Source: Diplocarpon mali
Taxonomy: Eukaryota; Ascomycota; Leotiomycetes; Helotiales; Drepanopezizaceae
NCBI GenBank assembly: GCA_024741835.1
Contig: JAENRP010000178.1
Span: forward strand, 25,613 to 89,612
Length of the DNA: 64,000 bases
Direction of reading: 5' to 3'
Shown: one piece after another, positions 3,321-43,618 of the stretch
How positions within the stretch are numbered: the first letter of the stretch is position 1
Layout: each line of letters opens with the position of its first letter
Made by a program: the position numbers and the translations under genes
The notes under the pieces: model-generated
Told to the model about the DNA's origin: nothing
The model's database searches: none
Seen by the model: only the letters and a program-made list of their open reading frames with translations

Positions 3321-3329
3321 TATTAACAC

Positions 3330-4838: not shown

Positions 4839-4979
4839 TCCCTACCTTTACGACTTTAAGTACTAACCTTACTTGCACTTATTATTTTTACAAATAGGGA
4901 TTGGTATTCTCAACTTACAAAAGTCTTATATTCTTTACTAATAGTAGCAAAGGCTATTATTTAAATTAGTTAAGGTATA

Positions 4980-5227
4980 TATAAAGACCTAGAAGTAGAG
5001 GATCTTATAATATAAGTTATATAGTTAGATAAGGATTAAGAAAGGGGTATATATAGGATTACTATTATATTTAAAGATAGCACGTAATACTAACTACCTA
5101 TTATACCCTTAATTAGTGAATTGTCCTAGTTCTTATCTTTAAAGAGCCCGCTTATAGTACTTCCTTCCTTTTGTCTTTGGTCTTCACGTAGGCCTATTCT
5201 TAGGTGTTATTCCTGCACTCTTTTATA
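4980..5227 (+). repeat. B1 3' LTR
   Basis: 248 bp, same length as the left LTR; differences seen are mainly C/T and G/A. Followed by TSD CTAT (5228-5231). Confidence 0.88.
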
Positions 5228-18710: not shown

Positions 18711-18957
18711 TATAGAGACCTGGGACGGATAGGTCTTATGATATATATCACATAATCGGCGCAGGACGGTAGGAGGATAAAAGGGCCATCTTCTGTACAT
18801 AGAGACAGGGCGCATCGCTATAGTACTAAATATACCCTATACTTAGGACTTGTCCCTAATATCTTATCTAAGAGAGCCCGCTTATAGTACTCCCTCCTTT
18901 TGTTTTTAGGTCTTCCCTTAGGCCTATTCTTATATTATCTCCTCCCTCTATTTTATA
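18711..18957 (+). repeat. B2 5' LTR
   Basis: 247 bp beginning TATAGAGACCTGG and ending TTTTATA. Partner at 34257 differs mainly by G/A and C/T. TSD ATAT at 18707-18710 and 34504-34507. The LTR centre (AGGACGGTAGGAGG) differs from that of B1/B3, so B2 is a separate subfamily. Confidence 0.9.
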
Positions 18958-19700
18958 TTAGTGACCTACGCAAGGACCGATTTCTTAAGATTTCTATCCT
19001 TAATACAACCTTATTAATCTCTTAGTTCGCAGATAAGAGACCGGCCTTTAAAATACGTCTTTAAAACACTTATAGCATCTTAATTAACTTTAAAAACCTT
19101 ATCCTTAATCGCTTAATTACTTAGAACTATCGATTTTCATTTAGCAACTATTAATAACCTTAGATTTTCCCTTTTCGGCTCTGCTTTAAAAACCCCTATT
19201 TTCTTCCTTAACTCTAAGATTTTCGGAATTTTCGGCTTCCTAGTATGAAAAGTTTAGCAAACCCTATAATAGCAATCTTAAACAGTAGTAGTTTCAAGTA
19301 CTCGAGTAATACTAAGCGCAAACTCCAACTAAAAGTGTCTTTTTAAAATCTTTAGAAATCCGAATCTGATAATTCAGCCGCCTTAGCTTAATAGAATTCT
19401 AAAAACTGCCTTAGAATCGTCTCTAAAGACCCCTTTATTCTAAGGACCAATAGGAATTGGCCTAAAGGCTAAGAAGAATCTTAGATATAAACCTTATTTT
19501 AGAAATTTGTCTTAGATTAAGTAAACCTTATCTTATTACAATTAGTCGCAACACTTCTATTAGCTATTTAGCACCTACTTAGAATCTCTTAGCAAACTCG
19601 GATTAAACTTTTAATAGAATCTAATATTCTACTCCTAAGCCTAGCCTATAAGTAAGAGGATAAAAAGACATCTTTAAACAACTTAAGGCCGCTACCTACT
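18958..19700 (+). other. B2 leader
   Basis: Opens with the block TTAGTGACCTACGCAAGGAC shared with B1 and B3, the likely primer-binding region. No convincing frame. One palindrome copy at 19631-19654. Confidence 0.6.
19631..19654. repeat. 25-bp palindrome copy (B2 leader)
   Basis: ACTCCTAAGCC...ATAAGTA; homologous to 3222. Confidence 0.75.
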
Positions 19701-19709
19701 TTTTTAATA

Positions 19710-22535
19710 TCGATATTAGAAAACATTAAAAATAATATTAATTTTAAACTTTTCGCTAACCCTTTATTCAAATCTTTTTAAACTCGTCTTAATCACTTTA
19801 AGATTAACTCGGATTCTAAACGTTTTTTAAGCCCTTTTGAATTTCGAAGTACTCCTCCTAGCAACTAATCATACGATATTAAGGCTTCCCCTTTGCCCCT
19901 TATAGATTCTATTAACTTAAACGGTTAGTATAAAACGATAATAGCTGCATTCAAGGCTATTACTAGCCACTTTCCCCTCCCTAGTTCCCCTAGTGCTCCT
20001 TACTTTATAAGAGCTAATATTACTAATTTCCTTAAGCAATATAAGGAAACTTATTACGATTTTAGTATTCTATAAGCGGATATGATTTCTCAGCTCCCTT
20101 GCTACTATAACTATATAAGCAAAGATATTATCAAATCCCTCTTTAAATAGAAGATATATAATTCATAAGAACTCCTTATTAAGGCTCTTAAGTCTAAATT
20201 CTAAGAATTTAATAAATAGTAGATTTGCGATACTCTAGCTTTCTTAAAGGAATTTATTCTAATCACTTGAACTCCTAAGGAACTTAAGAACTACTATCGG
20301 ACTTTTACTTATATATCAAATACCTTAATTAGCTAGAAAATACTTAGCAAAGTTGAACGAGGCTGCCTTTTCTTACTTAGATTACCTACTGGCCTTTGAA
20401 ATAAGATTATCAAGCATTTTAAGATCGATAAGCAAGACCTTATAACCTTTGCCTTATTTAAGGAATTCTCGGCCTTTGCTTTAAAATCAGATCTTAATAA
20501 GAGAACCATTAATACTATAGAATAGGAAAAAGCCCTTACTCCCTCTTATACTAAAGACCTTAAGAGCCTGGTCTAAGAACACTTGAAAGCTTTAGAAGTT
20601 ATAAAGGAGGTAAAGAAGAACTTAGTAGTCATACCTTTCACTTATAGGCCTGACCTAGGAGTAAGATCTAACCTTAGAATTGAGGAACTTAAGACCTAAT
20701 TTGCAGAACTCTAAATTTAAAGCTTAGAAACTAGGATTAATAATCTCTTATAAGAAAAATAGCATATTCCCTAGTTTAATAATAGATAAAACTCGGCCAC
20801 TATAAGCCAACCTAATAGTTCCTATTACTAGACTCCTGCTTCTTATCATTTGGAACAACCAGCTAATATAAGAATACAATAGCTAGCTAAAGAAGGAGGA
20901 ATTGATCCCAATTAGCACTCTGCTAATATCAATGCTATAGGGTACTAAGGAAACGGCAATAGAAGACAACTAACCTGCAATTTTTGCAATAACGAAGAAC
21001 CTAACTGCGCTTTATATAAGTACTATAACAATTGCCCTCTTTTCCTTCGTTTTATTAACACTAGGGTCATATATATTAACAAGTATGGGATGCTTTGCAT
21101 TAAAGATCCTAGGCTAAAAGCTATCCTTATTAAAAAGCACTAGAATCGCTTATAGTTATAGACTGTTTAAATAATAATATATAGTATGAAATAGGATAAG
21201 AATTTAGTCGAACAATAGCGTATTATAGATATGAATGCTAAAATTCCAACTTATATATACATAGGTCCAACTAGCAACCTACTTAAGGGAGTTCTTAAGG
21301 ACTTAGCTTTTGATTAAACAGCTATAGAAGTTAAAGGCATCTCTATCTTAAGATAGGTTAATAATAATATATCTATTGATATTAATACTACTTCTATATC
21401 TAGAAACCCTTGGAATACTCAGCGTCCTTTTAGATCTACCACTCCTTTAATATTAATAAAACCAGCCAAAGTCCAAAAATCAACGCGTATAACTTAAGAA
21501 TCTTAATATAAAGTCCAAATGCTAAAAGATACCTAACAATCTAGAACTATAGTAGATAAGGATAAAGCTAATATAGTAGACGAATTGATTAGAGATATAA
21601 TAGACGAAGATGGCTTTAAGCTTAAAGATTAAGAAGTTAAAGTTATTACATAGACCCTTAACCTTAAGCGAAAGAGATAGATATTAAAACGGGAAAAATT
21701 CATTAATAAATATACTAATTCAATTGCAATAAAGAAAGCTATAAAGAATATTATAGCCTAGCAAATTAACCTTATATTTAAAGACCTATTTAGTTTAACT
21801 AGACGCTTTAATAAAGTGCTAGGAAAGCATATCCCAATTGCCTTTAAAGATTTGAATAATAATAAGGAAATGGAAATTGTAATACGAAAGAACTCTAAGA
21901 AGCACTTAGCCTTAATTAAATATCTTTAGATTGCAGAAAACGAAAGAACCCAAAGGTACTATAACATTATGGCAATAGCTTTAATATCTTAGAATATCAA
22001 TCGAAATTATTCAGCAGTTGTAATAAAAAGCCCTATTATTATTTATTTAATAGAAGAATTAGTTAAAGCAAAGGCTCTAATCGATTATAGTTTAGAAGTT
22101 AATACGATAATTAGAAAAGTAGCAGAAATGACTTAATTAATAATCGTTAGCGATCGACTCCTTATTTATTCAACTGTTTCTAGATCGAAATACAATTTTA
22201 ATAGATAGGTGAAAAACGTAAAGGTTAGAGTCAAAGGAATCGTTAATTATACTAACTTTCTAGTAATAGAGAATTCTTCAAATGACATTCTTTTAGAAAT
22301 GCCTTTTATTTTAGAATCTCAGCTAATATTTAACTATCTTAAAGATAGTCTTATAAAAGCTAGTCTTTAGAATATAGATCGATCTTTAAAAGGATAAATG
22401 GTTATCGTAGGAGATATAGCCGAATTCTAAAATGAGGTTTTAGGAAACGATTAGCTAGCATAAAGGCTAGGCTTAATACTAATAAAGGAAGGCACCTAGT
22501 AAGGAGTTATAGTAAAAGAAAGGTAAGTTTGCCGA
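19710..22535 (+). pseudogene. B2 gag-protease ORF, RIP-degraded
   Basis: One frame of roughly 900 codons. The N-terminal half matches the B1/B3 gag (NHFKINSDS, AIIAAFKAIT, HFPLPSSPSAPYF, FLLRLPTGL). Unlike them it continues into a Cys-rich nucleocapsid segment at 20976-21035 (C-N-F-C, then C and C-P), spaced differently from a classical CCHC knuckle. Farther on, about 22190-22330, VKGIVNYTNFLVIEN followed by DILLEMPFILESQ resembles a retropepsin with its flap (ILLGMP in many gypsy elements). In-frame palindrome copy at 20639 (TYRPDLGV). Stops are mostly TAA/TAG. Confidence 0.75.
20639..20663. repeat. 25-bp palindrome copy (B2 gag, in frame)
   Basis: Translated TYRPDLGV. Confidence 0.8.
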
Positions 22536-22554
22536 TTTTGAATAATAGTGATTT

Positions 22555-22579
22555 GACTTATAATCCTAGATTAAGAGTC
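22555..22579. repeat. 25-bp palindrome copy (B2 gag/pol spacer)
   Basis: GACTTATAATC...AGAGTC. Confidence 0.75.
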
Positions 22580-22716
22580 AAATCTAGAATTTTGAAAAAT
22601 AGTATAATCGGCGTTTTATCGGCTTAACAATTAAGAAAAAAGAAAAATAAGATAAAGAAGAGAGTTCGTTTTACAAATTTCGATAATTCACTAATCATTT
22701 TGAAAAACTTAAAAAC

Positions 22717-22741
22717 CACTTATAAGCCGGACCCGCAAGTA
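22717..22741. repeat. 25-bp palindrome copy (B2 gag/pol spacer)
   Basis: CACTTATAAGCC...GCAAGTA. Confidence 0.75.
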
Positions 22742-24683
22742 AAAAATAATAAAATTACTAATGATATTTCCATTTACGCACTTTAAATTAATAACTTAGA
22801 AAATCTTTTATTTGTTTTTAAAAAGGAAAATTCAAACCGTTTTATAGGATTTAATAAAAAAGGAAAGAAGTAGAGAAGCATAGTACTAGCTAATATTCAA
22901 ACTATATATAAAAGCAAGGCTGATAAAGTACGACTAGTGGATTAGGGAATCTCTAATAGCTTAAAGCCTAAAGGACTAGATGATTAATTTAAATAAGATA
23001 AGAAGCTTCGACCTTTAAAGCTGGGTGGCAAATTCAATAAGTTTATTATAGGCAGATTTTCTAATAAACCCATCGGATATCGGCTAATAAAAGAACGTTT
23101 CAATATACTGAAAATTAAAGAAGACTTAATAGAGTAAGAATGCGAACTACTTTATAAAACCTTAACAAATCGAAAGGACGCCTTAGCTTTTAACTAGATA
23201 GAACTTAGCCAGATTCGAAAAGAGGTTACGCCTTATATTAAGATTAAGATAATACCTTACAAAGCTTGGCAAGAGAAAACATTCGATATCCCTAAAGCTC
23301 TTTAAGAAAAGGTAATCGAAATATTAAAGGATAGGCTAAAGCAAGGTATTCTCGAGTTCTATAATAGCCCTTATAAGAATAAATGGTTTTTAATTGCTAA
23401 GAAAGAAAAGGGAACTTACAGACTAATAATAGCAGTAGTAAAGATAAACCGAGTAACTATTAAGGACACTAACATTCCTTTAAATATAAATAAGTTCTTA
23501 AATGAATTCGCAGGATTAACCTGCAGCTCTCTTATTAACTTCTTCTTTAGATACAACCAATTTATTCTTAATATTAAATTAAGAGATATAATAGCAATTT
23601 AAACCCCTTTTAAGCTACTTCAAATAATAAGATTACCTTAAGAGGCTATAAATTCGATCGCTTAATTTATTTAAGTAATTTATAAGATACTAGTAGATTA
23701 TATACCTAATATTGCGCTCTCTTATATAGATAATATAGGAGTAAAAGGATTAAGATCATTCTATAATTATAAAGAAGTTCTCCTTAGTATATAACAATTT
23801 ATAATAGAATACATTTAGAACTTAGATTAAGTGCTTATATAATTCGAAAGGGCAAGAGCAATAGTTAGTCCGAAGTTATAATACTATCTTCTATCGATAG
23901 AAATTATTAGTTTCATTACTAATTCTAATAGCCGAAGTCCTTAAAGGGCTAAAGTACTTAAAATCGATAAATAGAAGAGGTGTGATAATATAGCAGAAGC
24001 TCGCGCGTTTATTAGCATTATAATATACTATCGCATATAAATCAAGGATTTTGCTAAAAAGGCAGTACCTATTTATTCCTTATTCTAAAAAGGGGCTAAG
24101 TTTCAATAGGAGGAACTTTAAATAAAGGCTATAAAACAACTGAAGCAGGCGTTGCTTAAAGCGCTATATCTGATTAAAATAGACTATAGAGCCGACGCTA
24201 GGCCAATTATACTAATAGTTGACGCAAGTTTAATCAAATAGGGTACTATCCTTTAATAAGCTAATAGCTAGTAGAGAAAACATCTAGCTTACTTTAAAAG
24301 TGGTCTTTAGAATCCAGCGGAGATAAAGTATAATACTATTAAATAGGAATGCAAAAGAGCCTTAAAAGCAATAAAAAAGATAAGAAGCGACCTCTATAGC
24401 ACTTACTTCATCCTTAAAACTAATGCTAAAGTGCTAATAGAATAATTGAATAGAGCTATAAGCGACCTACCTAAAGCCTTGCTAATAAAATAGATTGCTT
24501 AAATAAGACTAATGGACTTTAAAGTCAAACACATTCTAAAAATAAAAAACACTACTACTAACGGCCTTTTAAAAAGAACTCGTCCTTACCCCTTTAATTT
24601 AATTAAAGAAGATAAAATAGATATTAATAAATAGGTAGAAAACAAAATTAGTTATCTATTAATATATCGCCTTAAAGGGACTC

Positions 24684-24708
24684 GACTCGCGGTCCCGGCC
24701 TGCGAGTC
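24684..24708. repeat. 25-bp palindrome copy (B2 pol, different phase)
   Basis: GACTCGCGGTCC, C, GGCCTGCGAGTC: one of the best preserved copies, two mismatches in the stem. Read as LAVPACES, a different phase from the others. Confidence 0.88.
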
Positions 24709-26118
24709 AAATAAGAGAATTTTATTACTTAACTACTTAAGTAACTTTAAAGAAATCGCGAAATTTTTAATTACATTTAAACGACTAAAGACAATTGCTC
24801 TTAAGGATTTTTAGAAATTCAAAGCTAAAGCTCTGATTTATCTAATATAAGGAAGACGATTATTTAAAAGGAGCGATAACTCATTTCCTATATAGCTCTA
24901 TTTAGATAATAATAAACTGCAAGCTAAGGCTATTTAAGATATTTATAAGGAGACTGGTTATTAAGGAGCTAAGTCTACCTACCACTAACTCTTAAGGAAA
25001 TTCTTTTAAAAGGGTTCTTTTAAAGACTGCAAAGCCTTTATGAAAAGTTGCATCCCCTATTAGAAACGAAAACCTAATTATAAGGAAAATCCCTTATTCC
25101 TAACCTGGCCATTAGGCCTTTTCTATAAAGTCAGCCTTAATATTATATAAGTACTAACTATTAAGAATAGGATAATATATTTTATTTTAGTAAAGGAAGA
25201 CCTATTAAGATAGCCTAAAGGACAACCTTTAAGATCTGCTAACTCTAAATCTATTGCGAAGTTCCTTTAAGAAGATATAGTCTATTACTATAGACTTTTT
25301 AGCAGACTAACTATTAATAAAGGCCTTGAAAACAAAGGAGTAATTAAAGCTTTCTTATAGAAATATAATATTAAACGGGTTCAAATCTTAATATATAATT
25401 CAAAAGCTAATAGAGTAATAGAACGAGGATACTATAATATTCTTAATAGTCTATCTAAAGTTACTTATAAAGGATTTAAGGATTAGATAAAACGCTTTTA
25501 TAGAATACTCTTTACTTATCGAATGATAATCTATAAACCGACTAGAGTTATACTATTCTTCCTTATCTATAGCAAAAAGGCATAGCTCCCTCTTAAATCC
25601 TAATAGCCTATTTAAAGATTATTCAACTATAGTCAAATTTGGAACCGTTCTGATTTGCTTACAATAAGATGCCGATAACTTAAGCTCTAAGATATAGATA
25701 TAGAGGAAATCATTCTATAAAAGAAACGATATTAGGAAAAAGCTAAAGAAGCGTAGGCTGCTTCTAAAGTACTTAAAACGCACCTTATTTAAAAAGATAA
25801 TCTCGTCTTAGTCTACGATATTGTAAAAAGTATTAATATATTTGCAAATACTAAACTTAACTATCGATAGCTTAGTCTATTTAAGGTTAAGTCCAAGTAA
25901 GAAAAAAAGGGATACTATTCTCTTTAGGAACTTAATAGAGTCGATATTAAAGGAACCTTTGCAGCCAACCGACTGAAGCGCTTTTATTAATACAACTAGA
26001 CCTTATTCCTTTTAAAAGATAAATCAGAAATTGATACAACCTCCGAATCTTCTATAGGAATTAACGGCAATATAAGCAATTTTAAACCCTTAGATAAAGA
26101 CTAAGATTTTTCCAATTT

Positions 26119-26143
26119 GACTTATAAGCCGGTCTTATAAGTA
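26119..26143. repeat. 25-bp palindrome copy (B2 pol end, in frame)
   Basis: Translated TYKPVL-stop-V. Confidence 0.78.
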
Positions 26144-26235
26144 AAGAATATTAAAATACCTAACTAATCGCGACCTTAAGTTATTATTCCTAAAATATCC
26201 AAAGAATATAAGTAGGAATATTAAACGATTTCCTA

Positions 26236-26536
26236 GCCTATTAATTGTCTTACCTTCCTCTAATCCTTGTTTTTACATTTTTAGCAAGGTCGCCTCCTTT
26301 ATTATTTAGGATATAGATCTTTTAAGATCACTTTAAATTCTTACTTGCTTTAACTTATTTTGCATTCTTAATATTAGCCTTTAATTATAACATTCCTATT
26401 ACTTTCCTTAAATAATAAATAAAAAGTCCAATTTCCTTAATATATATATAGCAAACCTATTGCAGCTTATATGCCCTTTTAATTCTTATACCCTATTAAA
26501 CTCTTTTATTTATACTCCCTATCTTTCATAAGCAAT
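26236..26536 (+). other. B2 spacer between pol and first accessory gene
   Basis: AT-rich, no frame, includes a TATATATAG tract at about 26442-26450. No LTR-like ends seen. Confidence 0.5.
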
Positions 26537-27381
26537 ATGCCTTTAAAGAACTCACAAATGGTTTTATCTACTATAATAAGGGATAAATAAGCACTAGTTA
26601 TAAACTTCTCTTAGGACAGTAGAGCTATTATATTATTAGAGAGCTTCAAATCGACCTACGCAGCCTTAGGAGATATAGAGTAATTAAAACTCCTTTCAGC
26701 TTATGCAAATGCCATTAGCAACCTTTCAACCTAAGTGGCCCCTGGAATTCTCTAATTTGACAACTTCTTAACCGAAGAATTAAGGCTAAAGGGAATCTTT
26801 AAAGAGGAATTCTTAGCTAATGCAGATTAATATATAACTTTGGCCAACACTTTTAAAATAGACTAAGATAAAAGGGAAGAATCTATTTAACGATTAGATA
26901 ATTTAGCTACTAATAAAAGAGGACTCCTATTTCGTTTACGTTTCTTAACAAATATTAATTCTAATAATAGAAGGCGAGTATTATTAAAAATTCTTAAGGA
27001 AAACACTCCTATAGCTAGAGCTATTTAAATTCTTAATTTCTTTATTATTTAAAAAGGAGTAGTAAAATTCCAAGGCAATCGAATTCGCGGCTGTAAATTT
27101 ATAGGCCTATCTAATATAATACTTATAGCAGCTGATAGAGCTATAAAAAGATCAAATTAGGCTATAGATATTACCCTACCTAATAGCACTATTATTAATA
27201 TACTAGGGCTCTGCGCTTCTACTTATAGTTTGCTTATTTTAAAAGAAAACTAGACTCTTATGCTAAAGTTTAGACGAGATTTCTTTAATAATAAAGAAGA
27301 GAATTAGTTATTTGTAATCAAGCCTGCTTTAAAATTCGCCTCTTAGCCTAAAGATATAATAAGCGCTAAACTATATAATTT

Positions 27382-27406
27382 AACTCGCGGTCCTAGACTA
27401 GGAGTT
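27382..27406. repeat. 25-bp palindrome copy (accessory gene 1, in frame)
   Basis: Translated TRGPRLGV. Confidence 0.82.
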
Positions 27407-28767
27407 AGAAACGAGAATTTTAGAACTGGACCTAACCTGCCTTTTGCCGAAATGATTCTAGAAACCGCTGCCGAACAAACTGCCTAAACGCTTAGCGTAG
27501 CCTCTTTAGAGTTTTCGAAATCTTTAAGAGACTTTCCTTTAGCTAAATAACCCATTTTGGCTCAACCTTTAAAAAGGATAGATTATTTAATAGCCACCTT
27601 AGCTGATTTGCAATTTAAAACCAAAGGATTATACGCTTGCTTAGACTTCTTCCTTAATAACTTAAAGGAGCTAGTTCTTAACTTCTTTGTATTTATATAC
27701 AACTGTTTTAGAAATGATAAGATAAGAGAAGACCTTATTCCTACTACTCTAAAGATAACTAAGAGAGCTGTTAGATAAATTCAATAGCTTATCTTAGACG
27801 AGTTCGCCCTTATAGATATTATTTAATTCTTTAATAATTACAAAAGTTAAGAACCTAGTCTCTTAGATGCCAAGCGAGACTATTTTATCTTATAAGAAAG
27901 AGAATATAAAGAGGAATCTATTGATTAGGATATTTGTAATTATAGCAATATGCCTTAATCGGTTATTCTCAACCTTGAGCTTAGAGAATGATATAATATT
28001 TAGGTATCCTTTATAATAAAAACTCGCTTTCGATAGTATCTTCCTAGTATAGGAATCGAAGGAAGAAGACTTTGCAACCTTTATATTTGCTCTCTTTCGG
28101 TTTACTATAGTCTCAATTATAAAGGATTTGATATTAACGAAACTATTAAATACCTCAAACTTCTTTACGCAATAGAAGATATTGATCTTTTTCTAATCTA
28201 CCTTAATAATCAGTTCTTTGTCTCTTTAAAGATATGCAAATCTAACCTATTAATAATAGAGGCATCTCTAGGTATTATAAAATTCAAGGCTGATCCTAAA
28301 GCCTTAAAGGCGTTAAAGCCGATTGAATGGAACAATTCTTTCTTTTCGATATTATTAAGTAATAAATAGCAAAAGGAAATAGAGGAAGAAGGGTTAATTA
28401 TAATGCCTAAACCCTTCGGATGCCGCTTCCTAACCGACAATTTTACTACCGATAATAGTGCTTTTACAAGTATATTCCTTTCTATTATAAGATAAGAAGT
28501 AGAGATATACCTTTATTACTTCCGCCTTATAGATAACGCGACCTCTATACCTTCTTATTTTCTTTATAATATGATATTCAGCCTTACTTAATAAGTCCTT
28601 CGGATGCATTATAGACTCTACCTTTTAGCTATAATAGCGAAAAGTAAAAGAGCCTATCAGCTTATAGCCTACCCTGAACCTCCCTAATTGATTGGCCTTA
28701 GTCTTTATAATTAAGTCATTTTAATAAAGAGAGATATAAGTACTACTAATAAAGAAATTCCGATTTT

Positions 28768-28792
28768 CACTTATAGTCTTAGCCCGCAAGTC
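28768..28792. repeat. 25-bp palindrome copy (accessory gene 1, in frame)
   Basis: Translated TYSLSPQV; near the position of 32714 in accessory gene 2. Confidence 0.75.
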
Positions 28793-29652
28793 AATTTTAT
28801 TAAAAAGTAAGTCTTAGATTATCAGATCCTATTAATCGGATAAGGGCTAGCTTTTAAAAGCCTTAATAGGTAGGTCGGCTTTTAATTAATTATAAAACTC
28901 ACTCTATTTGCAAAGAAGATAAGTCAATAGACTTCTTAGGCACTCGGTTCAAAATCTTAATTAGCTCAAATAACCGCAAAGTTAAAGCGAAAGGAGATCT
29001 TGCGACCTATTACTAATAATAGCAATCTAATTATAATAATAATAAAATAGGAATACCTTTTTAAAATGCTTTCGGACAATTCTTATAAGACTAATAGTTT
29101 TATAGCCTTTTGCAATAACTATATAGCTGTCCTTAATAAGAACACCTTGGAAAATGAGATTCGAATCTCTAATTTTATCTTTTTAATCTCTACTTTAAAG
29201 CAACCTCTAGTACCTTAATAGATTAACGCAAGTAGAACCACTGCACCTTTTAAAGCAGCTTTTCATCTTAAGAACTGCAGTAGCCTCTTTAAAGCCATTA
29301 TTAGTTAATGCTCTTAAATAGATCTATCAGTTATAATCGAAGTATAGGAGTTGTTTCTTCTTAATAAAGACGAATTAAAAATCCACCTTATAAAATATAA
29401 TCAGAAGCTCTTTAATGCCCTTATTAAGGCCTAAACGAACGTTACAAATACTAAGTCGCTTTTTTATAGACTTAAGTCTTAAAGATAATGCGATAAAGTA
29501 AATGCTATCCGAGAGCCTAATACACTAATTAATAAAGGCATTATTATAAGAAGATTCGGAAAAGGGACGAACCGAGACGCTAGTATAGTATCAGACCTTA
29601 ATTTGGAAACCAATCCCCTGTTTTTACCCTTAAGCTTAGAAATGCTAAGACT

Positions 29653-29677
29653 GACCCGCAAGCCTAGCCTACGAGTA
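29653..29677. repeat. 25-bp palindrome copy (accessory gene 1, in frame)
   Basis: Translated TRKPSLRV. Confidence 0.8.
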
Positions 29678-29830
29678 AGGATAGACTCAGCTGGCTTAAG
29701 CCTATAAGAAGGTTCGGATGAACCTCGGTCACCAAATCTAGGGGTACTAATAGAAGATCCTTTAAGAGAGGTCCCTAAAGCTAAGAAATCGCTAAGAAAT
29801 AAGAACCAATGCAAGAGAAGAAGACTCTAA

Positions 29831-30410
29831 AGTAATAATAGAATTAACAATTAAATTGACTTAATCTAGAGAATCATAATCTACCCCCTTTTGAAAACCA
29901 TTTGGAGAGATTGCGAATTAGATATTGAATTTTTTTTAAGATTATTTACTTTCTATATACCTATACCTCTTTATTCTTAACCTATTATTCTATTCTATAT
30001 ATATTCTTTATTTACTTTACTCTTTATATGATTTATTCTTTAATTATTCCCTTTATATACAACTTTCTAACGCTTACCTTTGAAATATCGTCCTTACCTT
30101 TGACAATTATCATTTACTAAAAGTAGGTCCTTATATGCGTTATATCCTACTTTTGTTCCTACTTCTAGGCTCATTATGCCTACTTTTTCTTTATGCACTA
30201 GTACGATTCCAAACTCTATAAATAAGCCTTTCCTTGCACTACGATTTTACTTTTTTACTTCTTCTATAACCCCACTAGTACTAATAATACTACTAGTACT
30301 ATCTTTCTATTATTAATCTTTTCTAATCCAAGCCTCCTATTTCGACAAAATTCTTTCTAAAGATTTATTCCTTAGCAAGGAACCTTATCACTTTTATCAA
30401 ATAATTCATT
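29831..30410 (+). other. B2 spacer between the two accessory genes
   Basis: 580 bp, AT-rich, no frame. Contains a T-run near 29930 and scattered TACTAGTACT-like inverted motifs at 30265-30305. No LTR, terminal inverted repeat or target duplication recognised. Confidence 0.5.
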
Positions 30411-31297
30411 ATGGCCCCCTTTAGCATAGGCAAAAAGGTCACACTTAAGAAGAATATATTACTTATTGCCTTAGGTAGTAAGTCTTTAGCAATATCTAGC
30501 AATGAACTAATATTAGAAGGTGGATTCTTATAAGATAGGAAGACTCTTCGGTCATTAGAAGATATTATAAGTACTTATAGAACATTAGGCGAGATAGAAC
30601 AGCAGGTATTCCTAAATTCATCTATTAAAGTGCTTAACTATAGAATTTCTACTATTAAGGAAGGATTCTTAGGTTTTGATAATTTCTTAGATAAGGAACT
30701 CTAAGGCAAAGGTATTAATCGAGAGAAGTTTTTACAAGAGTATTAGAGGTATGCTAATTTAATTGATTTATTTCGGAAGAACTAAGATAAGAAAAATAAG
30801 TGTATAAAAAGGTTAATATAATTCATAAATAGCATTTGTAGCATACTTTTCCAGACCCACTTTATAACCGACATTACCGCTAATAATACCCTATAGGGGC
30901 TTAGTAAAATTTTTAAGATATACCAACTAGTAGCAAAGGCTATATAAGTATTAAATCATTTCACTATTTAAGAAGGTATAAAGAAACTCTAAGGCAATAA
31001 GGTAAGAGGTAGAAAATTTGTTAGTTTCTTAAGCACTATTATACACACTACCATTTAGACTATAAAAGACAATCCCATATAGTACGATAGTCTAGCCCTT
31101 CCCAACTAGACAATTTTAAACACCCTCGGCCTATAATAATTATAATATAGTCTACTTATTGCAAAAGAAAAGATAATCTATCTTATTAAGTATATTATAA
31201 ACTATTTTAATAATAAAATAGAAAGATAGGAATTTGTAGTTCCTATTGCTTAGAAAATGCTGCCACCCTTAGTGGAACTAACTAATAAGGAAAATCT

Positions 31298-31322
31298 AAC
31301 TTATAGGCCTAGCCTATAAGTA
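31298..31322. repeat. 25-bp palindrome copy (accessory gene 2, in frame)
   Basis: Translated TYRPSL-stop-V; AACTTATAGGCC/GGCCTATAAGTT-like arms. Confidence 0.82.
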
Positions 31323-31483
31323 GAATCAGCATATAATAGAGAAGTCCTTAAGCATAAGGTACCTATGATATTAGAAATACAAACTGCTAACTATTATAAT
31401 CCTAAATCTTTAAATATAGATATATTTAAATCACTATCCTTAGAAATGCCTAGAATACCTTAAACACTAGTAGCAAAGAAGTT

Positions 31484-31508
31484 GACTCGCGGGCCTAGCC
31501 TACGGGTT
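31484..31508. repeat. 25-bp palindrome copy (accessory gene 2, in frame)
   Basis: Translated TRGPSLRV. Confidence 0.82.
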
Positions 31509-32713
31509 AATATATATAATAATATAGACTTAAAAGAAGATTCATTAAAGGAAGAGAATAGCGCTATTACTAATATGCTAGAAATTTTTAATAATACTAA
31601 GAAAGACATTTCTAATATCGTTCAATCCTTCCTTAAGGACTTATAAAAATTTGTGCTTAAATTCTATAAGTCGATAATAAAGCGTTTGAGAAAAGAAGGT
31701 TAAGGAGAAGTTTTATTAGCATAAGAAGGAATAGCAAGGGCTGTTAAACAAATTATAAAACTGCATTAAGACGAATTCTCTATAGATAATATTATATAGT
31801 TCTTTATCAACTATAAGAAATTAAATAGTAACTACTATATTCTTAAAGAAAAGTCAGAAGATAGTATAACTATTATCTTTATAGAATGCTATTAAGTTCC
31901 CTTTAATATTAAGATAATACTATAGTATGGCGATAGATTCAAGATTATAGTAATATTAGAAATGAAAACAAGACTTTCCAAATTTATAGTAGGAATATTC
32001 AAGGACTTTAATTTTAATAAATTCTATACCCTTTATAAATGATAATATGCGTAGTACTATAGGCTGGCGATAATAGGCCTTAATAACGAAGATATATTAT
32101 CTAATATCTATAAACTTTATACTACTCTTAACTTAAAGTTGTTTTTACTATACCTAGGGAATTATGCAATTGTAGCTACTAGCAATAGAATAGTAAGCTA
32201 GGTTAAGAAAGATATATCATTAGGATTCGCTAAGTTTAAGGTAGCGCTTAAAGCTTTGAAATTATTTTATAATATCGCCTGGACTCCCGCCTAGTATAAT
32301 GCTATATTAACTAGTGATAAATTGATATTATTTTAAAGCAAAGGTTTTTTAAATATGCCTAAGCTATTTAGCTATGCCTTTTTAAGTGCTATACGCATAT
32401 ATAGTTATAGTTCTCGCGCAAAGACTTCATTTTTAATATTAGCATAAGAAGAACTAGAAATATACTGATACTACTTCTAAGTCTCTGATAAGAAGCTAGC
32501 TCCTCTATCCGCGTTCCTCTATAATATAACTCACAGTTTAATACAATAGACTCTAAGAATGCACTATAGATTATATCTAAGCGCTTTGCTTACTTATTAT
32601 AATTCTTTATATAAGCTAGTAATATACCCTAAGCCTGCATAGTTTATTAAGGTTAACCACTATTTGAAAATCGTTGCAATTAGAATTGATACTAATATAA
32701 GATTTATAAGATT

Positions 32714-32738
32714 GACTCCTAGGCCTAGCTCGCGGGTT
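32714..32738. repeat. 25-bp palindrome copy (accessory gene 2, in frame)
   Basis: Translated TPRPSSRV. Confidence 0.82.
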
Positions 32739-33535
32739 AGCCCTCTTAATAATAGAACTATTAACTACTATATTATTCTAGTAGTTAAACAGTCGACCGG
32801 CCAATTTGCTATATAAGAGAAGTCTTACGAATTATCAATCCTTATACTAATTAGACCTAAGAATACTTAATGGATTTCGATAAACTTAGTATAAAGTACT
32901 ATTTAATAAAAAGAACTAAATATTAAATAAAGGACGTTCTTAAAAGAATATGTTTCTAATAAGACTGTCCTATTCTTAGTATTTATAAGATAAGGAATAT
33001 TCGTTAACTTAGATTCAGAATAAGAACCTAGCAAAGGCGGCTTCCTTACGATTAGTAACAACTATACTAAAGTTGTTAAGAACGAAGCCCTTAAGAATAG
33101 AGTAGACCTAAAGGACTTTTTAATCGAAGCTATTAATATAAAGCGACCCTAAACTGCAAGATAGAGTATTATAGGCGAATTATTTGCAAAGTTTTATATA
33201 ACACTTGGAATAACAAAAGGTGGTCTATTATTAAAGGCGCTTATAAGAAGAAGACTATAGAACGATCTATTAGTTATAATAATAGTAAAAGACTTATTTG
33301 CAAAGGATATTACGCAGTTGATAACTTATTTAAAGAAATATAAGTAAGAACTGTTCGAAGATTTTACAAATACCTGGAAAATGATTCAATAGTTAGAGCT
33401 ATAGCTATATAAAGACAAGTCTTAGGCTAAGACTAAGGGTATAGATAATAGTATTAAGGCCGATAATATAATCGACGAAGTTATTCTTCTTAAGAAATAT
33501 AGCACTAAGAAACCTTAAGCAAAGACCCTAGAAAT

Positions 33536-33560
33536 AACTCCTAGGCCTGGCCTACGACTC
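33536..33560. repeat. 25-bp palindrome copy (accessory gene 2, in frame)
   Basis: Translated TPRPGLRL. Confidence 0.8.
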
Positions 33561-33960
33561 AATCTAAAGAAGGGTAAGGATAAAGAACTTATATCTATCG
33601 AATCCCCTGCTGTATCTCCTTTAGCAGTAGGTAACTCTCTAGAGGATAATAATAATAATAAAGATAATAATAATAATAATGCTATAATATAAGTCTCTCT
33701 CCCTATTAGCAGAAGCTATTATATTATACTAGTATCCGCAAGGAGTATAAAAGCTCTTGCTATACTAAGACCTACCTCGTTAGATACTAATAGCAATACT
33801 ATAAGAAGAAGTGGTCATTTAGCGAAGAGAGTATTATCTAATAATAATTCTCCCTATCTCCTAAAGAGAACTAAGGAAAATTGACATCTGAGTTAGTACT
33901 ATTTTTAATTGTTTTTACGACTCTATAGCTTGTTTATCTATTTTGCTAGTTTCGTTTTCT

Positions 33961-33985
33961 AACTCCTAGGCCTAGCCCGTAGGTG
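33961..33985. repeat. 25-bp palindrome copy next to gap (B2 3' region)
   Basis: AACTCCTAGGCC...GTAGGTG; the N gap follows at once. Confidence 0.82.
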
Positions 33986-34071
33986 NNNNNNNNNNNNNNN
34001 NNNNNNNNNNNNNNNNNNNNNNNNNNNNNNNNNNNNNNNNNNNNNNNNNNNNNNNNNNNNNNNNNNNNNNN
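33986..34071. other. Assembly gap (86 N)
   Basis: Starts at the base after the palindrome copy 33961-33985, as does the other gap in the window. Confidence 0.99.
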
Positions 34072-34256
34072 AAAAAACCCCTTCTTTTTTTCTTTTACCT
34101 TTAATAATAATATAGCTCTAGTTTAGGCCTTTTAACATATTAGTTTTCTTGCACTTAGGGTTTACTAGTAATTGATATACTATTGCCTTAACCTATATTA
34201 TTTTATATTCTTTGCTAATAGTAATAGAGGCTACTACTTTTATTATTTAAAACATA

Positions 34257-34503
34257 TATAGAGACCTAAGACGGATAGGTCTTATAATATATATCATATA
34301 ATCGGCGCAGGACAGTAGGAGGATAAAAGGGCCATCTTCTATATATAGAGATAGGGCGCGTCGCCATAGTACTAAATATACCCCATACTTAGGACTTGTC
34401 CCTAACATCTTGTCTAAGAGAGCCCGCTTATGGTACTCCCTCCTCTTGTTTTTAGGTCTTCCCTTAGGCCTATTCTTATATTGTCTCCCCCCTCTGTTTT
34501 ATA
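34257..34503 (+). repeat. B2 3' LTR
   Basis: 247 bp beginning TATAGAGACCTAAG and ending TTTTATA; TSD ATAT follows at 34504-34507. The open frame 34410-34715 crosses this boundary and is spurious. Confidence 0.9.
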
Positions 34504-36595: not shown

Positions 36596-36850
36596 TGTTA
36601 CGGCCGCATTACGTATACGGTTATATCACGTATTGGTCAGGTGCACGAAGTCAGGTGCCCGCTAAGGTAGCAAGGTAGCTGGATCACGTGCATACTAGTG
36701 AAGCACCTGTACTTATTCTGAAGGAGCTCTATTAAAGACTCTCTTTTCTTCTTTATCTTTTCTTCTTAATTATATAGCGTACCTCTTAAGGTAATATAGT
36801 TAGCGTTATTCGATTCTCGCCTTTTATACGCTTAAGAGCGAGTTGTAATA
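36596..36850 (+). repeat. E 5' LTR
   Basis: 255 bp, begins TGTTACGGCCGC, ends GAGTTGTAATA. GC content is higher and RIP lighter at its start than in the right copy (TATTATAGCCGC). Confidence 0.93.
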
Positions 36851-37690
36851 TAAAAAAAGATCAACTTAACCTCTGCTAAGAAGCTTGATATCTACTACCT
36901 TTAGAATCGTTATTTCGAACTGCCTTAAGCAACTCGATCTCTCGATCTCGACTTCTATTATAAACTACTTTAAGCAACTTATATATAGCACTTAGATCTT
37001 ACTAATCTAGTTTTTAGAAAAAGCTGAAAAACGACCTTCAAATATAAGATTAGCTCGTTTTTTCGACCTTTTACCTCCTCTATTTAGCAAACGGAGATTT
37101 ACCTTTAATTTCAATTCGAAAAAATTTTATTCACTATACCCCCGCTTCGCTAGCATAGGCTGCTGCCTAAAGTAGTATAATAGCTTTTCTCTTCTTAACT
37201 TTCTCCCTCCCTTATAAACAACTCTGTACTACTCTTTTTTATTAATAATATACTTATTAACAACTCTCCTTATACTCTTCGAAGCTCCTTACTCCTTCCT
37301 TCGAATACTCGGGTACGAAACTGGAGGACCTATACTTATATATATATATAGAGACTTGGTCAGCCTTAGTAGGTTATACTATACTATTAGAGACTAGGTC
37401 AACTTTAGTAGAATAATAAGCTTTAGATCCTTAGACCCTACTTCCTTAGATTTGCACTATACCCTTAAGCAACCTTATTGCAACTCCTGATTAGTAAAGA
37501 GAAGTGATCTTAAAGTAAAACCTTCTTTCTTAAGATTTATAAACTTATGATACCTTAATATATACTCTACTAGAAGGCTTTAAGAATATATATAGCTCCG
37601 CTTATACTAATCTTCCCCCTTTTAAATAGGTCACTATTTAGCATTAGGTCCCTTTAGACTAAATTAAATAATATAAAAAGAGTTAATACT
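36851..37690 (+). other. E leader
   Basis: Starts TAAAAAAAGATCAACTTAAC after the LTR (putative primer site, tRNA not identified). No credible frame; a TATATATATATATA tract occurs near 37339. Confidence 0.55.
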
Positions 37691-37691
37691 T

Positions 37692-39060
37692 ATGACCTCT
37701 AATCTTATACCACTTAAGAGAAGTGAAAGGTTAACTATACCTCTACTACTAGGCCTTACTGCCACTAGTTCTATAGGCCTTACTGCTAACCCTGGTCCTA
37801 GAGATATTCCTCCTCTTAAGCCTACTTAAGAAGAAACCTCCTTTAGTACCGATTTTACTCCTAGGCCTAGACTGCGAGTGGATTCTTAAAATACTCCCCT
37901 TTTATCGATTAAAGTTAAGGAAGAACTAATGTCTACTTCTACTATATTAGCCCCTCTTTTCTTAGCTACTTAATAGACTGAAATCGCAAACCTTATTAGC
38001 GCTACTATAGCTATCGCTCTTTAAAATAATACTGCCGCCCCTTCTTCTTTAAATACTAGCCCTTAGAATACTTAGTCCTTTACCGCTGACTTACTGCCTC
38101 CTTTAGACTATTACCTTCCGATTATTAGACCTTTAGTCTTAGCTATCGACCCCTATCGAATTAAGTACCCTTAAACTTATTTTAGCAACTACTAGGGCAA
38201 AATCACTTATAACACTTAAAAGATAGCTATAAAGGTATTTATTTAAAAGTACTTAAGCAACTTTACTTTAGGAGAGGACTAGATCACTACCTACTTTAAA
38301 TATATAATAGGTAAAGCTTAAAACTTAATCTTATAATATATAGATCCTATCTTTACTAATAAGTTTATATGCGCTACTAACGTCCTTAGGGTCTTAGATT
38401 AAAGGTTCTTTAATTATAATTACATTTAATCCACTAAGCTCAAATATAGCAGGCTAACTATAGGTTTATTATTATATAATAAGTTCCGATCTAAGTTTAT
38501 TATCCTTATTATAATTAGAAAGATCGATTAATTTCGCTAATTCGATAATATCTATAAAAAGGTCTCTTTAGCTTTAAAGAACGACCTTTAAATAGAGAAG
38601 TATAAAATAAATAATAATTATACTACTTTAGATAAGTTCTTAGCTATTGCGGACCGTAAGGCCTATAATATTAAGTAAGAAAAGGCCTATAATACTCGAT
38701 AAGTCGCCTCTGCTATTGCGTTCTCTCTCTTAAAGGACTGCGTCCCTGGTATACTAAAAAGGGAGTTATAGAGACCTACTGCTATAGCTATCTCCTTAGC
38801 TCCCTACACTTATTCCCTTTTGCCAGCGACTTATTAAGAAAGGTCTGCTAGCCTAAAGCCGTTATCTAGTCTCTATTATAACTATAAAGCCCTTAATCAC
38901 TATATAATAGACTGCCTAAAGCTAAAGAAGCAAGGTGAGTTTATAATAGCTAAAGTTGAGATAGAAAACGACCTACTATTAAGAAACTACTAAGCTATAG
39001 CAAAGACTCCTACTATAATATAAGTTATAATTTGTAAAAAGATTTAGATTTTGATTCCTA
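37692..39060 (+). pseudogene. E gag remnant
   Basis: From ATG 37692 (MTSNLIPLKRSERL) a frame runs through a Thr/Ser/Pro-rich N-terminus into a capsid-like middle and a decayed zinc knuckle near 38876-38925 (YNYKALNHYIIDCLK; first Cys residues now Tyr, His and last Cys kept). Palindrome copy 37856-37880 is in frame (TPRPRLRV). TAA/TAG stops are frequent. Confidence 0.78.
37856..37880. repeat. 25-bp palindrome copy (E gag, in frame)
   Basis: Translated TPRPRLRV. Confidence 0.82.
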
Positions 39061-39630
39061 CCTATTAATAGGCGGCCGCCAGTTTTTAATTCCTATAGAA
39101 CTAGCTTAAAATAGATCATTTATTAAAATAGTTACTTATATTAATAATAGAGCTAATATTTTCAGTATTATTAAGATATCTTTAGTATACTAGCTCTCTT
39201 AAAGACTTAGGGTAAAGTTTATTAAACTACTTAAACCAATTACCCTTATTAGCTATAATAGCCTTAAGAGAGAAACTATTCGATTTACCGTCTTACTTAC
39301 CCTTATAATCGATAGGCGATAAATAAACTTCCCTTTCTTAATCATAAGCTTAAGAGCAATTGATATTTTAATTAGTAGGAAGTTCCTAAAGTACTATAAC
39401 CTTAAATAGTCCTATAAAAGGAAAAAAAACAGTATCTCTTAGCTTAAGGATATGCCTATTGTTTCTTACTTTAATTAATATATACTAATCGATCTCTTAT
39501 AGCTAATAAAACCCTTAATAGCCTAATAAGATATCGATTATTAAGCAGCTATAATAGATGCTAAGGATAAAGACCTTAGAATAGCTTAAGCCTAGCTCTT
39601 AGTACTAGTAAGCATTAACGCCTTGAATTC

Positions 39631-39700
39631 CACTCTTAATCCTGGCCTACGAGTGAAATCTGCGAACTCGAATTCTACTCCCAGTCCTGGCTTATAAGTA
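39631..39700 (+). repeat. 45-bp tandem repeat, 2 units, in E pol
   Basis: Two palindrome copies, 39631-39655 and 39676-39700, exactly 45 bp apart with similar linkers. Translated in frame as NSTLNPGLRVKS and NSTPSPGL-stop-VKP. Confidence 0.9.
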
Positions 39701-41584
39701 AAACCTACTAATTCGATTCCTACTCCTATAGCCTTTTATAGACTTAAGGATAGTAGTTTCTTTAAAGACTTAAAAAGAGATCTGAACTATATAAAGAAGG
39801 CCTTACTAAGAGTATTAGACCCCTTGCTCCCTCTCTTAGTAAAAAGGAACGCTACTTTAAAGCCGGCTTACTAGATTAGCTTAATTTTAGCCTTAGCAAT
39901 CGGTGCCCTCTACTACCGCTTTATAACTAAGGTAAGATAAGCTATATAAACTTAAGAACCAGCGCTTAAAGAGTTTATATTTATAAGCTCTATTTACAAT
40001 CTAAACTAAGAAATCAATCGCTAAGAATCGGTTAGGCAAGCTGAAATTAGCTCCCTTGGCCTTAGTTCGGCGCTATAAGCTAAGTATAAGAGCAATAATA
40101 AGCTAATAGATTAGAAGCTCTTGCCTTAATACGCTAAGTTTAAAAATGTCTTTAGTTGCTAGGCCTTTAACTAACTGCCGGAATCTAAGCTAAAGGTAGA
40201 TTATAAAATCAAGCTGATAAGTAAGAACAACTTAATAATCGAACCCCTTTGCCGCCTTACTAATAAATAGCTCTTAAAGGTTAAGAGCTATATTCTTAAG
40301 AACTTATATAAAGGATTTATTAAAGCTTTAAGTTCCCTTTAGGTAGCCCTAATCCTCTTTATTAGAAAAGCTAATAGCTCCTTATATCTATGCGTTGACT
40401 ATTAGAAATTAAACGCCTTAATAAAGAAAGACCCTTACCTAATTCCTTTTATTAATAAGATAATAGCATATATATTGAAAGCTTATGTTTTTATAAAAAT
40501 CGATATATAATAAGCCTTTTACTATATTTGCATATTAGCTAATGCTAAGGACCTAACTACCTTTCGCATACGCTATAGGACCTATAAGTATAAGGTTTTA
40601 CTATTTAAGCTAATAAATAGGCCTACTACCTTTTAAAGGTTTATTAATAATATTCTCCTTAAGTACCTTAACGATTTCTACTCTACCTACTTAAATAATA
40701 TTCTAATCTACTTAAAAAACTCCTTTAACTATAAGATTTATATTAAGAAGATCTTAGGAATTCTCTAACGCTATAGCCTTTAAGTAGATATTAAAAAAAG
40801 CGAGTTCGGGATTATTAAGACTAAGTTCCTAGGGTTTATTATTAAAGTTTATAAAATTGAGGTAGACCCTAATAAGGTCTTAGTTATTTAAGAGTAGAAA
40901 TACGCCAAGAATGTATATAGTATATAAAGCTTCCTAAGGTTTTATAACTTCTATCGAAGGTTTATTTAAAGCTATAGTTATATCTGCCGACCTTTAATAG
41001 CTCTTATAGGAAACGTTCCTTTTAATTTTAATAATACTTATAAGGAAGCTTAGGAAGCTTTGCACTTAAGGCTTTAAACGACCCTGATTTTATATTACTA
41101 TTACCCTTAGAAGTAGATAAGGCTTAAGACCGACGCCTTTAATAGTGTAGTTGCTAGCGTACTCTCTTAACTTTAAGAAGACGAGAATTACCATCTAATT
41201 AGGTACTTCTTAAAGATAATAAATGACGCTAAGCTAAATTACCCTATTTATAATAAGGAGCTCTTAGCGATTTTTAAATCATTCTACTAATATAAGGCAG
41301 AGCTACTTAGGGCTTAGAAAATAGTATACGTATATATAGATTATAAGGCCCTTAAGTACTTTATAATAATTAAGGACTTAATAGCCCGGCAGGCTTGCTA
41401 GGCGGAATTCTTTGCTAATTTTAACTTCCTTATTATATATTAAATAGGTATAACGAATACGCTAGCTAACACACTCTTACGTTAAGACTAGGAGCTGACC
41501 CCTCTTAAGGCCAGGAAACGAGCTTTACGCTACTAGTAGCTCTTACCTAACGATAAGCTCTCTATAGAAGTACTTGCTACTAGA

Positions 41585-41710
41585 GGCGATTCTACTCCTA
41601 GGCCCGGCCTACGAGTGACTTTAGCATAGGTCGATTCTACTCTTAGGCCCGGCCTACGAGTGACTTTAGCGCAGGTCGATTCCACTCCTAGGCCCGGCCT
41701 ACGAGTAATA
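41585..41710 (+). repeat. 45-bp tandem repeat, about 2.8 units, in E pol
   Basis: Palindrome copies at 41593-41617, 41638-41662 and 41683-41707, period exactly 45 bp (15 codons), in frame (DSTPRPGLRVTLA). Nearly identical units, GC-rich and little RIP. The minus-strand open frame 41533-41757 is only its mirror. Confidence 0.93.
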
Positions 41711-43344: not shown

Positions 43345-43363
43345 TTTCAAAGGGGGGAGGTAG
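43345..43363 (+). promoter_or_regulatory. E polypurine tract
   Basis: CAAAGGGGGGAGG immediately upstream of the 3' LTR. Confidence 0.75.
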
Positions 43364-43618
43364 TATTATAGCCGCATTATATATATAGTTATATTATATA
43401 TTAGTTAGGTGCACAAAGTCAGGTGCTTGCTAAAGTAGCAAAGTGGCTAAATCATATATACGCTAGTAAAGCACTTGTACTTATTCTAGAGGAGCTCTAT
43501 TAAAGACTTTCTTTTCTTCTTCATCTTTTCTTCTCAATTATATAGCGTACCTCTTGAGGTAATATAGTCAGCGTCATTCGATTCTCGCCTTCTGTACGCT
43601 TGAGAGCGAGTCGTAACA
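43364..43618 (+). repeat. E 3' LTR
   Basis: 255 bp, begins TATTATAGCCGC, ends GAGTCGTAACA. TSD GCCCT at 43619-43623. Confidence 0.93.

What the first reader, a model, noticed from the sequence alone, without database searches (positions are those of the whole stretch)
18711..34503. Giant 15.8-kb Ty3/gypsy-type element with two extra 1,100-codon genes
Seen: equal-length 247-bp LTRs, TSD ATAT, gag-protease and pol in gypsy order, then about 7.3 kb holding two long frames on the same strand before the 3' LTR. Known: typical fungal Ty3/gypsy elements are 5-8 kb and end soon after integrase; known additions are small (chromodomain, dUTPase, RNase H, env-like). Inference: this is an LTR element that carries a large accessory module of unknown function, perhaps env-like, capsid-like or a host-interaction factor.
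Basis: partly seen in the sequence, partly recalled or inferred. Interest (0 to 1): 0.88.

Follow-up and report, generated by a model that had tools for sequence, protein, structure and literature searches.

The report
Giant fungal retrotransposon, hypervariable extra gene
A fungal jumping gene about twice the usual size carries two extra genes that arose from each other, and one of the two exists in many reshuffled versions while the rest of the element stays nearly the same from copy to copy, which suggests it may be used in a long conflict with the host or with rival elements.

Summary
Window 18711-34503 is a 15.8-kb Ty3/gypsy retrotransposon of a fungus, probably Diplocarpon coronariae, degraded by RIP-like C>T mutation. 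Two extra genes follow pol on the same strand: gene1 26537-29851 (1105 codons) and gene2 30411-33881 (1157 codons). They are a family trait, not a nested insert: 20 of 20 gene1-anchored loci run into gene2 and 16 of 19 pol-anchored loci run into gene1. Uninterrupted relatives carry consecutive D. coronariae locus tags, PZA11_006394 and PZA11_006393. The genes are paralogues (28% over 1054 aa, E 1e-101). Gene2 is hypervariable and mosaic: mean pairwise transversion divergence is 4.76% against 0.33% in gene1 of the same 20 copies, with about 25-fold more synonymous divergence and mostly purifying selection. Env-like is not supported: hydropathy shows no membrane segment. No known domain or usable fold was found. 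Best mechanism, inferred: soluble accessory proteins acting inside the cell, gene2 diversified by recombination, possibly in conflict with host factors or rival elements. Passive exchange with older families is the main rival.

The parts
18711..18957 (+). 5' LTR, 247 bp, termini TATAGAG...TTTTATA (as expected for RIP-altered TG...CA)
19602..22300 (+). gag-protease frame (approximate limits; degraded)
   Evidence: frame openness, translation; 19900-21500 aligned in the window and 10 linked copies; protease read by eye only
22301..25999 (+). pol: RT, RNase H, integrase, in Ty3/gypsy order (approximate limits)
   Evidence: RT-RH to Ty3 RT 4ol8 E 5e-16; RT_RNaseH_2 E 1.8e-9 and Integrase_H2C2 E 6.4e-6
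26537..29854 (+). gene1: accessory gene, 1105 codons plus TAA, frame closed by RIP-like stops in this copy
   Evidence: relative PZA11_006394 of Diplocarpon coronariae
30411..33884 (+). gene2: paralogue of gene1, 1157 codons plus TGA, hypervariable among copies, frame closed by RIP-like stops in this copy
   Evidence: relative PZA11_006393
33986..34071 (.). assembly gap (N) at an A-rich tract; of 20 fetched copies 4 end at a contig end and 5 run into N at this place
34257..34503 (+). 3' LTR, 247 bp

Best explanation
A multicopy 15.8-kb Ty3/gypsy LTR retrotransposon of the apple-blotch fungus Diplocarpon coronariae (host inferred). It has a fixed accessory module of two tandem paralogous genes between pol and the 3' LTR. 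Shown: the order pol-gene1-gene2, followed by the LTR where the assembly reaches it, is a family trait; both genes encode full-length proteins of about 1,100 residues; they derive from one ancestral gene; gene2 exists as several old, recombining types inside otherwise near-identical elements, and its types diverged mostly under purifying selection. Inferred: the proteins are soluble and act inside the cell, probably in the nucleus (acidic tail, then a basic C-terminus), at a late step such as nuclear delivery, integration or regulation of transcription. Gene1 supplies the conserved function. Gene2 is the variable partner whose contact surface must differ from, or escape, something that also varies: a host restriction factor, or an interfering product of rival elements, as Gag differs between Ty1 and Ty1' under self-encoded restriction. 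Template switching between co-packaged RNAs makes the mosaics, and rare types gain an advantage.
For: Collinearity: 20 of 20 gene1-anchored loci carry at least part of gene2 downstream. One is cut short inside gene2, one is joined to an inverted LTR after 33837, and one is replaced upstream of 26570 by another repeat. 9 of 20 show the in-line 3' LTR and 9 of 20 end at the gap or contig end near 33985. 16 of 19 pol-anchored loci run into gene1; at the other 3 the place is taken by the same other repeat. Consecutive locus tags of the uninterrupted D. coronariae relatives. Paralogy. Hypervariability: mean tv 4.76% in gene2 against 0.33% in gene1 over 190 pairs of 20 copies, gene2 above gene1 in 163 of 190; pol end 0.27% (18 copies); gag 0.87% (11 copies). 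Control sample picked by gene2 instead of gene1: gene1 forms one group (13 copies, tv 0.34%), gene2 forms four (18 copies, tv 1.58%). Mosaics and decaying linkage: r2 0.32 to 0.17 and four-gamete pairs 13% to 49% with distance. Selection: gene2 tv dN/dS 0.25, 4009 of 6048 transversions at third positions. Public proteins P0002-P0005, on contigs of 2.3-5.2 Mb, show the same kind of variation and patchwise similarity.
Against: No fold, domain or solved relative for gene1 or gene2 (poor models). No gene2 region shows tv dN/dS above 1 except one 120-bp window in a disorder-prone linker, ratio 1.46, so a fast arms race is not shown; the types are old rather than fast. Gene1 itself has tv dN/dS 0.59 on few changes (432 tv over 36 pairs), so its constraint is less clearly shown. 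gag also has a dimorphic block at 21100-21400, and the intergenic stretch 29900-30380 has tv 2.64% and the 3' LTR 1.36%, so gene2 is not the only variable part. Of pol only the end was compared between copies by transversions. In the gene2-picked control the contrast is smaller (1.58% against 0.34%). Nuclear location rests on composition read by eye. The link to conflict is analogy.
Confidence: 0.5

Rival explanations
1. Passive modular exchange. The gene2 types were imported by template switching from older related giant families, with no selection for diversity; flanking parts look uniform because one lineage expanded recently and exchange happens to start and stop around gene2.
For: Mosaic structure, and limits near 29.7-30.3 kb and 33.85 kb; gag also has a dimorphic block; purifying selection with no clear positive selection; gene1 and gene2 distances are correlated, r 0.52.
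Against: Neutral import should also leave deep types in pol and gene1. None were seen in gene1 (20 copies, 13) or in the pol end (18 copies). The 42 gene1 copies scored against P0001 show no separate group (67-83% identity), but they are the best of 623 candidates, so this is weak.
Confidence: 0.3
2. Composite artefact: a second element nested inside an ordinary 8-kb Ty3 element.
For: The window is a nest of elements, and nested insertions do interrupt other copies.
Against: Same junctions and spacing in many independent loci; consecutive locus tags of the D. coronariae relatives; no clean junction without the module among the 19 pol-anchored loci.
Confidence: 0.03
3. Envelope-like proteins, making this an errantivirus-type element.
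For: Position between pol and the 3' LTR.
Against: No hydrophobic N-terminus or membrane stretch in P0001-P0005, highest 19-residue hydropathy 1.26; two genes of over 1,100 residues.
Confidence: 0.03
4. Host genes captured and duplicated by the element.
For: Accessory genes in retroelements can come from hosts (general knowledge).
Against: No relative outside D. coronariae in three searches of 5.8 billion proteins, each limited to the roughly 8,000 candidates sharing most exact 5-residue words; no Pfam family.
Confidence: 0.08
5. Local hypermutation of gene2 during replication.
For: The strongest divergence is confined to gene2 and the stretch just before it.
Against: Third-position excess and tv dN/dS 0.25 show long filtered evolution, and whole patches are shared between types.
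Confidence: 0.04

Closest known systems
Ty3/gypsy (Metaviridae) LTR retrotransposons of fungi
   Same: LTRs, gag, pol order RT-RNase H-integrase, RT closest to Ty3 among solved structures
Plant Tat/Retand/Grande elements with long pol-3'LTR regions (PMC11963269, passages read)
   Same: Large accessory region between pol and 3' LTR with additional ORFs; a DNA-binding or regulatory role is suspected there
   Different: There the region is 2.9-6.6 kb, most ORFs are antisense and 97% of clusters have an antisense TRP28 domain (sense ORFs without known domains occur too); here two sense genes of 1,105 and 1,157 codons, paralogous, with no Pfam match on either strand of this copy
Boty-like / BcGypsy1 elements of Botrytis cinerea with brtn (PMC4227169 and PMC8365987, passages read)
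   Same: A gypsy-type element of another fungus of the order Helotiales (placement of Botrytis recalled) carrying an additional gene
   Different: brtn is antisense by the title of its source paper (seen in a reference list only); homology to gene1 or gene2 could not be tested
Ty1/Ty1' gag subfamilies under copy number control (PMC7055915 and PMC12530519, abstracts read)
   Same: One gene diverged between subfamilies with recombination; the divergence decides which elements are restricted
   Different: There it is the gag capsid of a Pseudoviridae element; here an accessory gene of unknown function with five to nine type groups per 300-bp window among 20 copies
crapaud of Podospora (PMC10787394, abstract and sections 8 and 12 read)
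   Same: A RIP-exposed fungal LTR family with variation concentrated in one part of the element
   Different: There the variable part is the 5' half (U3) of the LTR, here a protein-coding gene

Membership tests
Ty3/gypsy (Metaviridae) | Paired LTRs flanking gag and pol | tested here: met
   LTR matches at many loci (706 candidates, 40 scored)
Ty3/gypsy (Metaviridae) | RT-RNase H-integrase order and RT related to Ty3 | tested here: met
   Pfam RVT_1 itself did not match the degraded RT
Ty3/gypsy (Metaviridae) | Target-site duplication | tested here: inconclusive
   ATAT on both sides in an AT-rich flank, one copy only
Ty3/gypsy (Metaviridae) | tRNA primer-binding site after the 5' LTR | tested here: inconclusive
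   two tRNA patterns derived from the bases after the LTR had no match
Errantivirus / env-carrying element | Extra protein with signal peptide and membrane anchor | tested here: not met
   hydropathy of P0001-P0005; no dedicated predictor was available
Plant Retand-type accessory region | Antisense ORF with TRP28 (PF04195) domain between pol and 3' LTR | tested here: not met
   no Pfam match at E up to 1 in the three antisense frames of 26537-33884 or in the sense frames of gene1 and gene2; this copy is degraded, so a weak match could be lost
Boty-like element with brtn | brtn homologue | not testable with these tools

The most novel reading that the evidence does not exclude
Gene2 is a polymorphic recognition gene of a retrotransposon: types are kept diverse by frequency-dependent selection and shuffled between elements, so that each element tells its own products from those of rivals or escapes a type-matched host factor, while its paralogue gene1 stays constant. 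It would be a hypervariable accessory locus inside an LTR retrotransposon.
Probability: 0.3. Interest if true: 0.86.

Novelty: new variant of a known kind. Interest (0 to 1): 0.68.

Why it matters
LTR retrotransposons with extra genes are known, best from plants. A fungal Ty3 element that keeps two large paralogous genes across its family, one of them in many old recombining types, is a different pattern. It offers a natural many-allele system for asking what accessory genes of retrotransposons do and whether elements compete with each other. The uninterrupted public proteins make the question testable in laboratory yeast with single proteins. It also bears on annotation: these proteins sit in public databases as 'hypothetical protein' or 'unnamed protein product' of an apple pathogen although they belong to a mobile element.

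Tried and rejected
Nested insertion: rejected by shared junctions. Env-like: rejected on hydropathy. Known domain: Pfam gave nothing above threshold for the gene1 and gene2 frames, the antisense frames or P0001-P0005; PHROGs and NCBIfam nothing convincing for P0001 and P0002; PDB nothing convincing. Weak hits taken as chance: EF-G-binding_N E 0.02-0.2 in P0002-P0004, ribosomal S15 E 0.006-0.04 in a frame outside the genes, ParcG E 0.06 in gag, phrog_2934 E 0.036, ribosomal L9 and an ABC transporter E 0.26-0.31. Fold: two AlphaFold jobs with five rows each gave pLDDT 31 and 30, so no fold search was run. A short recurring RGPGPRV-like motif in the linkers was sought as one guessed DNA pattern in the genome: 0 matches. 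Primer tRNA: 0 matches. Ascertainment bias (gene1 looks uniform because copies were picked by gene1) was tested with a gene2-picked sample and rejected; 5 of its 17 loci had no gene1 match at the expected place and were dropped from the gene1 side. Other dropped rows: 3 of 13 gag loci (two without match, one partial); 1 of 20 stretches did not exist; L015 (truncated in gene2); L022 for stretches beyond 33800 and in the 100-bp profile; L022 and L026 for the pol end. first gave 2.5% tv for the pol end because the non-homologous stretch of L026 was included; without it 0.27%. The nine type representatives were chosen by me from the identity table. The span lengths are multiples of three by construction of the search; what counts is that at least 1102 of 1105 and 1151 of 1157 residues align in one frame. 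Misassembly of mosaics: made less likely, not excluded, by the public proteins on contigs of 2.3-5.2 Mb. Two notebook entries are looser than the calls: entry 2 says most of 20 copies have the 3' LTR (9 do), and entry 4 gives one LTR start for 8 LTRs (they vary slightly).
Full report
What was checked. The window lies in a 49.4-Mb assembly of 676 contigs. The element at 18711-34503 has two 247-bp LTRs that differ by 18 transitions and no transversions. Its termini, TATAGAG...TTTTATA, are what RIP would leave of TG...CA. RIP is inferred: in gene1 across copies only 9 of 343 invariant C stand before A, and C/T and G/A differences abound, though in CpT about as often as in CpA. The RT/RNase H region matches the Ty3 RT structure 4ol8 at E 5e-16, and RNase H and the integrase zinc domain follow in that order. 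ATAT flanks both ends; in such AT-rich flanks this is weak. Two tests for a tRNA primer failed.

The extra genes are real. No ORF of 150 codons is listed in the 64 kb, because the frames are filled with stops. Read with stops as X, the two frames have relatives only in Diplocarpon coronariae among the proteins scored: PZA11_006394 (1105 aa, 68%) for gene1 and PZA11_006393 (1157 aa, 68%) for gene2, plus three further gene2-like proteins. The two locus tags are consecutive. Aligned to these, gene1 is 26537-29851 and gene2 is 30411-33881, each with ATG and a stop behind it. 42 scored copies of gene1 and 40 of gene2 in this genome align over at least 1102 of 1105 and 1151 of 1157 residues in one frame (the best of 623 and 622 first-look candidates). 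All 370 differences between gene2 and P0002 and 338 of 361 between gene1 and P0001 are of the C>T/G>A kind, against 12% in a shuffled control.

The module belongs to the element. In the capped hit lists, gene1 and gene2 pieces lie 3700-3706 bp apart at 9 loci (3982 at a tenth) and pol and gene2 pieces 8499-8514 bp apart at 8 (my count). Of 20 gene1-anchored loci, all run through gene1 into gene2 (one cut inside gene2, one joined to an inverted LTR, one replaced upstream of 26570 by another repeat); 9 show the 3' LTR in line and 9 end at the gap or contig end near 33985. Of 19 pol-anchored loci, 16 continue into gene1; two are interrupted, and one is occupied, by the same other repeat, by its look an LTR element. 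A clean junction without the module was not seen there; LTR-anchored copies were not surveyed.

The two genes are paralogues. They are 28% identical over 1054 columns, E 1e-101, and P0001 is 36-38% identical to the four gene2-type proteins. No convincing relative was found in Pfam, PHROGs or NCBIfam (P0001 and P0002 only) or the PDB. Hydropathy shows no signal peptide or membrane segment. A middle linker and the C-terminal tail are disorder-prone by composition, and the tail runs from acidic to basic, which suggests but does not show nuclear location. Structure prediction failed.

Gene2 is hypervariable. Because RIP makes only transitions (general knowledge), transversions (tv) measure older divergence. 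Over 190 pairs of 20 copies, tv divergence is 0.33% in gene1 (maximum 0.65%) and 4.76% in gene2 (maximum 6.85%); gene2 exceeds gene1 in 163 pairs, and 28 pairs are under 1% in gene2. The pol end has 0.27% (18 copies) and gag 0.87% with a dimorphic block (11 copies). The stretch between the genes has 2.64%, the stretches behind gene2 0.68% and 0.00%, and the 3' LTR 1.36%. The variable stretch begins between 29.7 and 30.3 kb and ends close to the gene2 stop. Among nine type representatives, synonymous tv divergence is 0.157 in gene2 and 0.0064 in gene1, and tv dN/dS is 0.25 in gene2 (4009 of 6048 tv at third positions) and 0.59 in gene1 (432 tv). Only one 120-bp window of gene2, in a disorder-prone linker, exceeds 1. 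Per 300-bp window, 5 to 9 type groups are seen and copies change group along the gene. Linkage falls and four-gamete pairs rise with distance, as expected from recombination. A control sample chosen by gene2 gave one gene1 group (13 copies, tv 0.34%) and four gene2 groups (18 copies, tv 1.58%), so the contrast is not due to how copies were picked, though smaller there. The public proteins P0002-P0005, on contigs of 2.3 to 5.2 Mb, vary in the same patchwise way, which argues against misassembly.

How it most likely works. Shown: a family-wide module, two paralogous proteins, and old recombining types in one of them under constraint. Inferred: soluble accessory proteins acting late in the cycle, gene1 constant and gene2 under selection to differ. 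The nearest worked example is Ty1, where divergence of gag between subfamilies decides self-restriction (PMC7055915, PMC12530519, abstracts). The main rival is passive exchange with older families. It explains the mosaics, and the dimorphic gag block fits it, but it does not explain why gene1 and the pol end lack deep types in the copies sampled. Purifying rather than positive selection within gene2 is evidence against a fast arms race and is compatible with both.

Known context. Extra genes after pol are best known in plant Retand-type elements, mostly as antisense ORFs in regions of 2.9-6.6 kb (PMC11963269, passages), and in Boty-like elements of Botrytis with brtn (PMC4227169 and PMC8365987, passages). 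A survey of fungal LTR elements mentions added domains in complex, multiply inserted elements (PMC3248453, passages). The D. coronariae genome paper (PMC11527701) reports 20.74% Copia and 5.67% Ty3 elements; in the 12 of 22 passages seen this module is not mentioned, and 'gypsy' and 'RIP' do not occur in its main text. For D. rosae 7.1% LTR elements are reported (PMC5628827, passages). Ten searches of the paper library (seen as listings, with no hit) showed no description of this module; most subscription papers are not held.

Verdict. The hypervariable paralogue is the main result.

Noticed in passing
window 2263-5230 (+); by the repeat pairs a second copy, interrupted, on the - strand between 46907 and 57376: A 2,968-bp LTR element made of LTR, leader, gag and 3' end related to those of the giant element (69% DNA identity over 1-2088 and 2585-2965) but without pol, gene1 and gene2: a gag-only, presumably dependent partner.
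   Followed up: partly
window 21100-21400: A dimorphic block near the end of gag: 4.3% transversions against the window in 3 of 10 copies (L016, L017, L022), but 0.7% in L020, which mostly shares its gene2 type with L016, so it is not tied to gene2 type.
   Followed up: partly
P0001-P0005 linkers; similar peptides by eye in the gag and pol frames of the window: A short recurring motif like RGPGPRV occurs 3-4 times per protein, mostly in disorder-prone linkers; one DNA pattern guessed for it had no genome match.
   Followed up: partly
window 33986-34071 and the same place in other copies: An assembly gap or contig end recurs at the same A-rich tract shortly before the 3' LTR in 9 of 20 fetched copies; some others hold short N runs there too.
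   Followed up: no
window 36598-43616; window 1-2260 and 59919-62178: Another LTR-like pair (84%) and long inverted arms (88%) show that the window is a nest of several degraded elements.
   Followed up: no
L031, L034, L047: Another repeat, by its look an LTR element, has inserted in at least two giant copies at or inside the start of gene1.
   Followed up: partly
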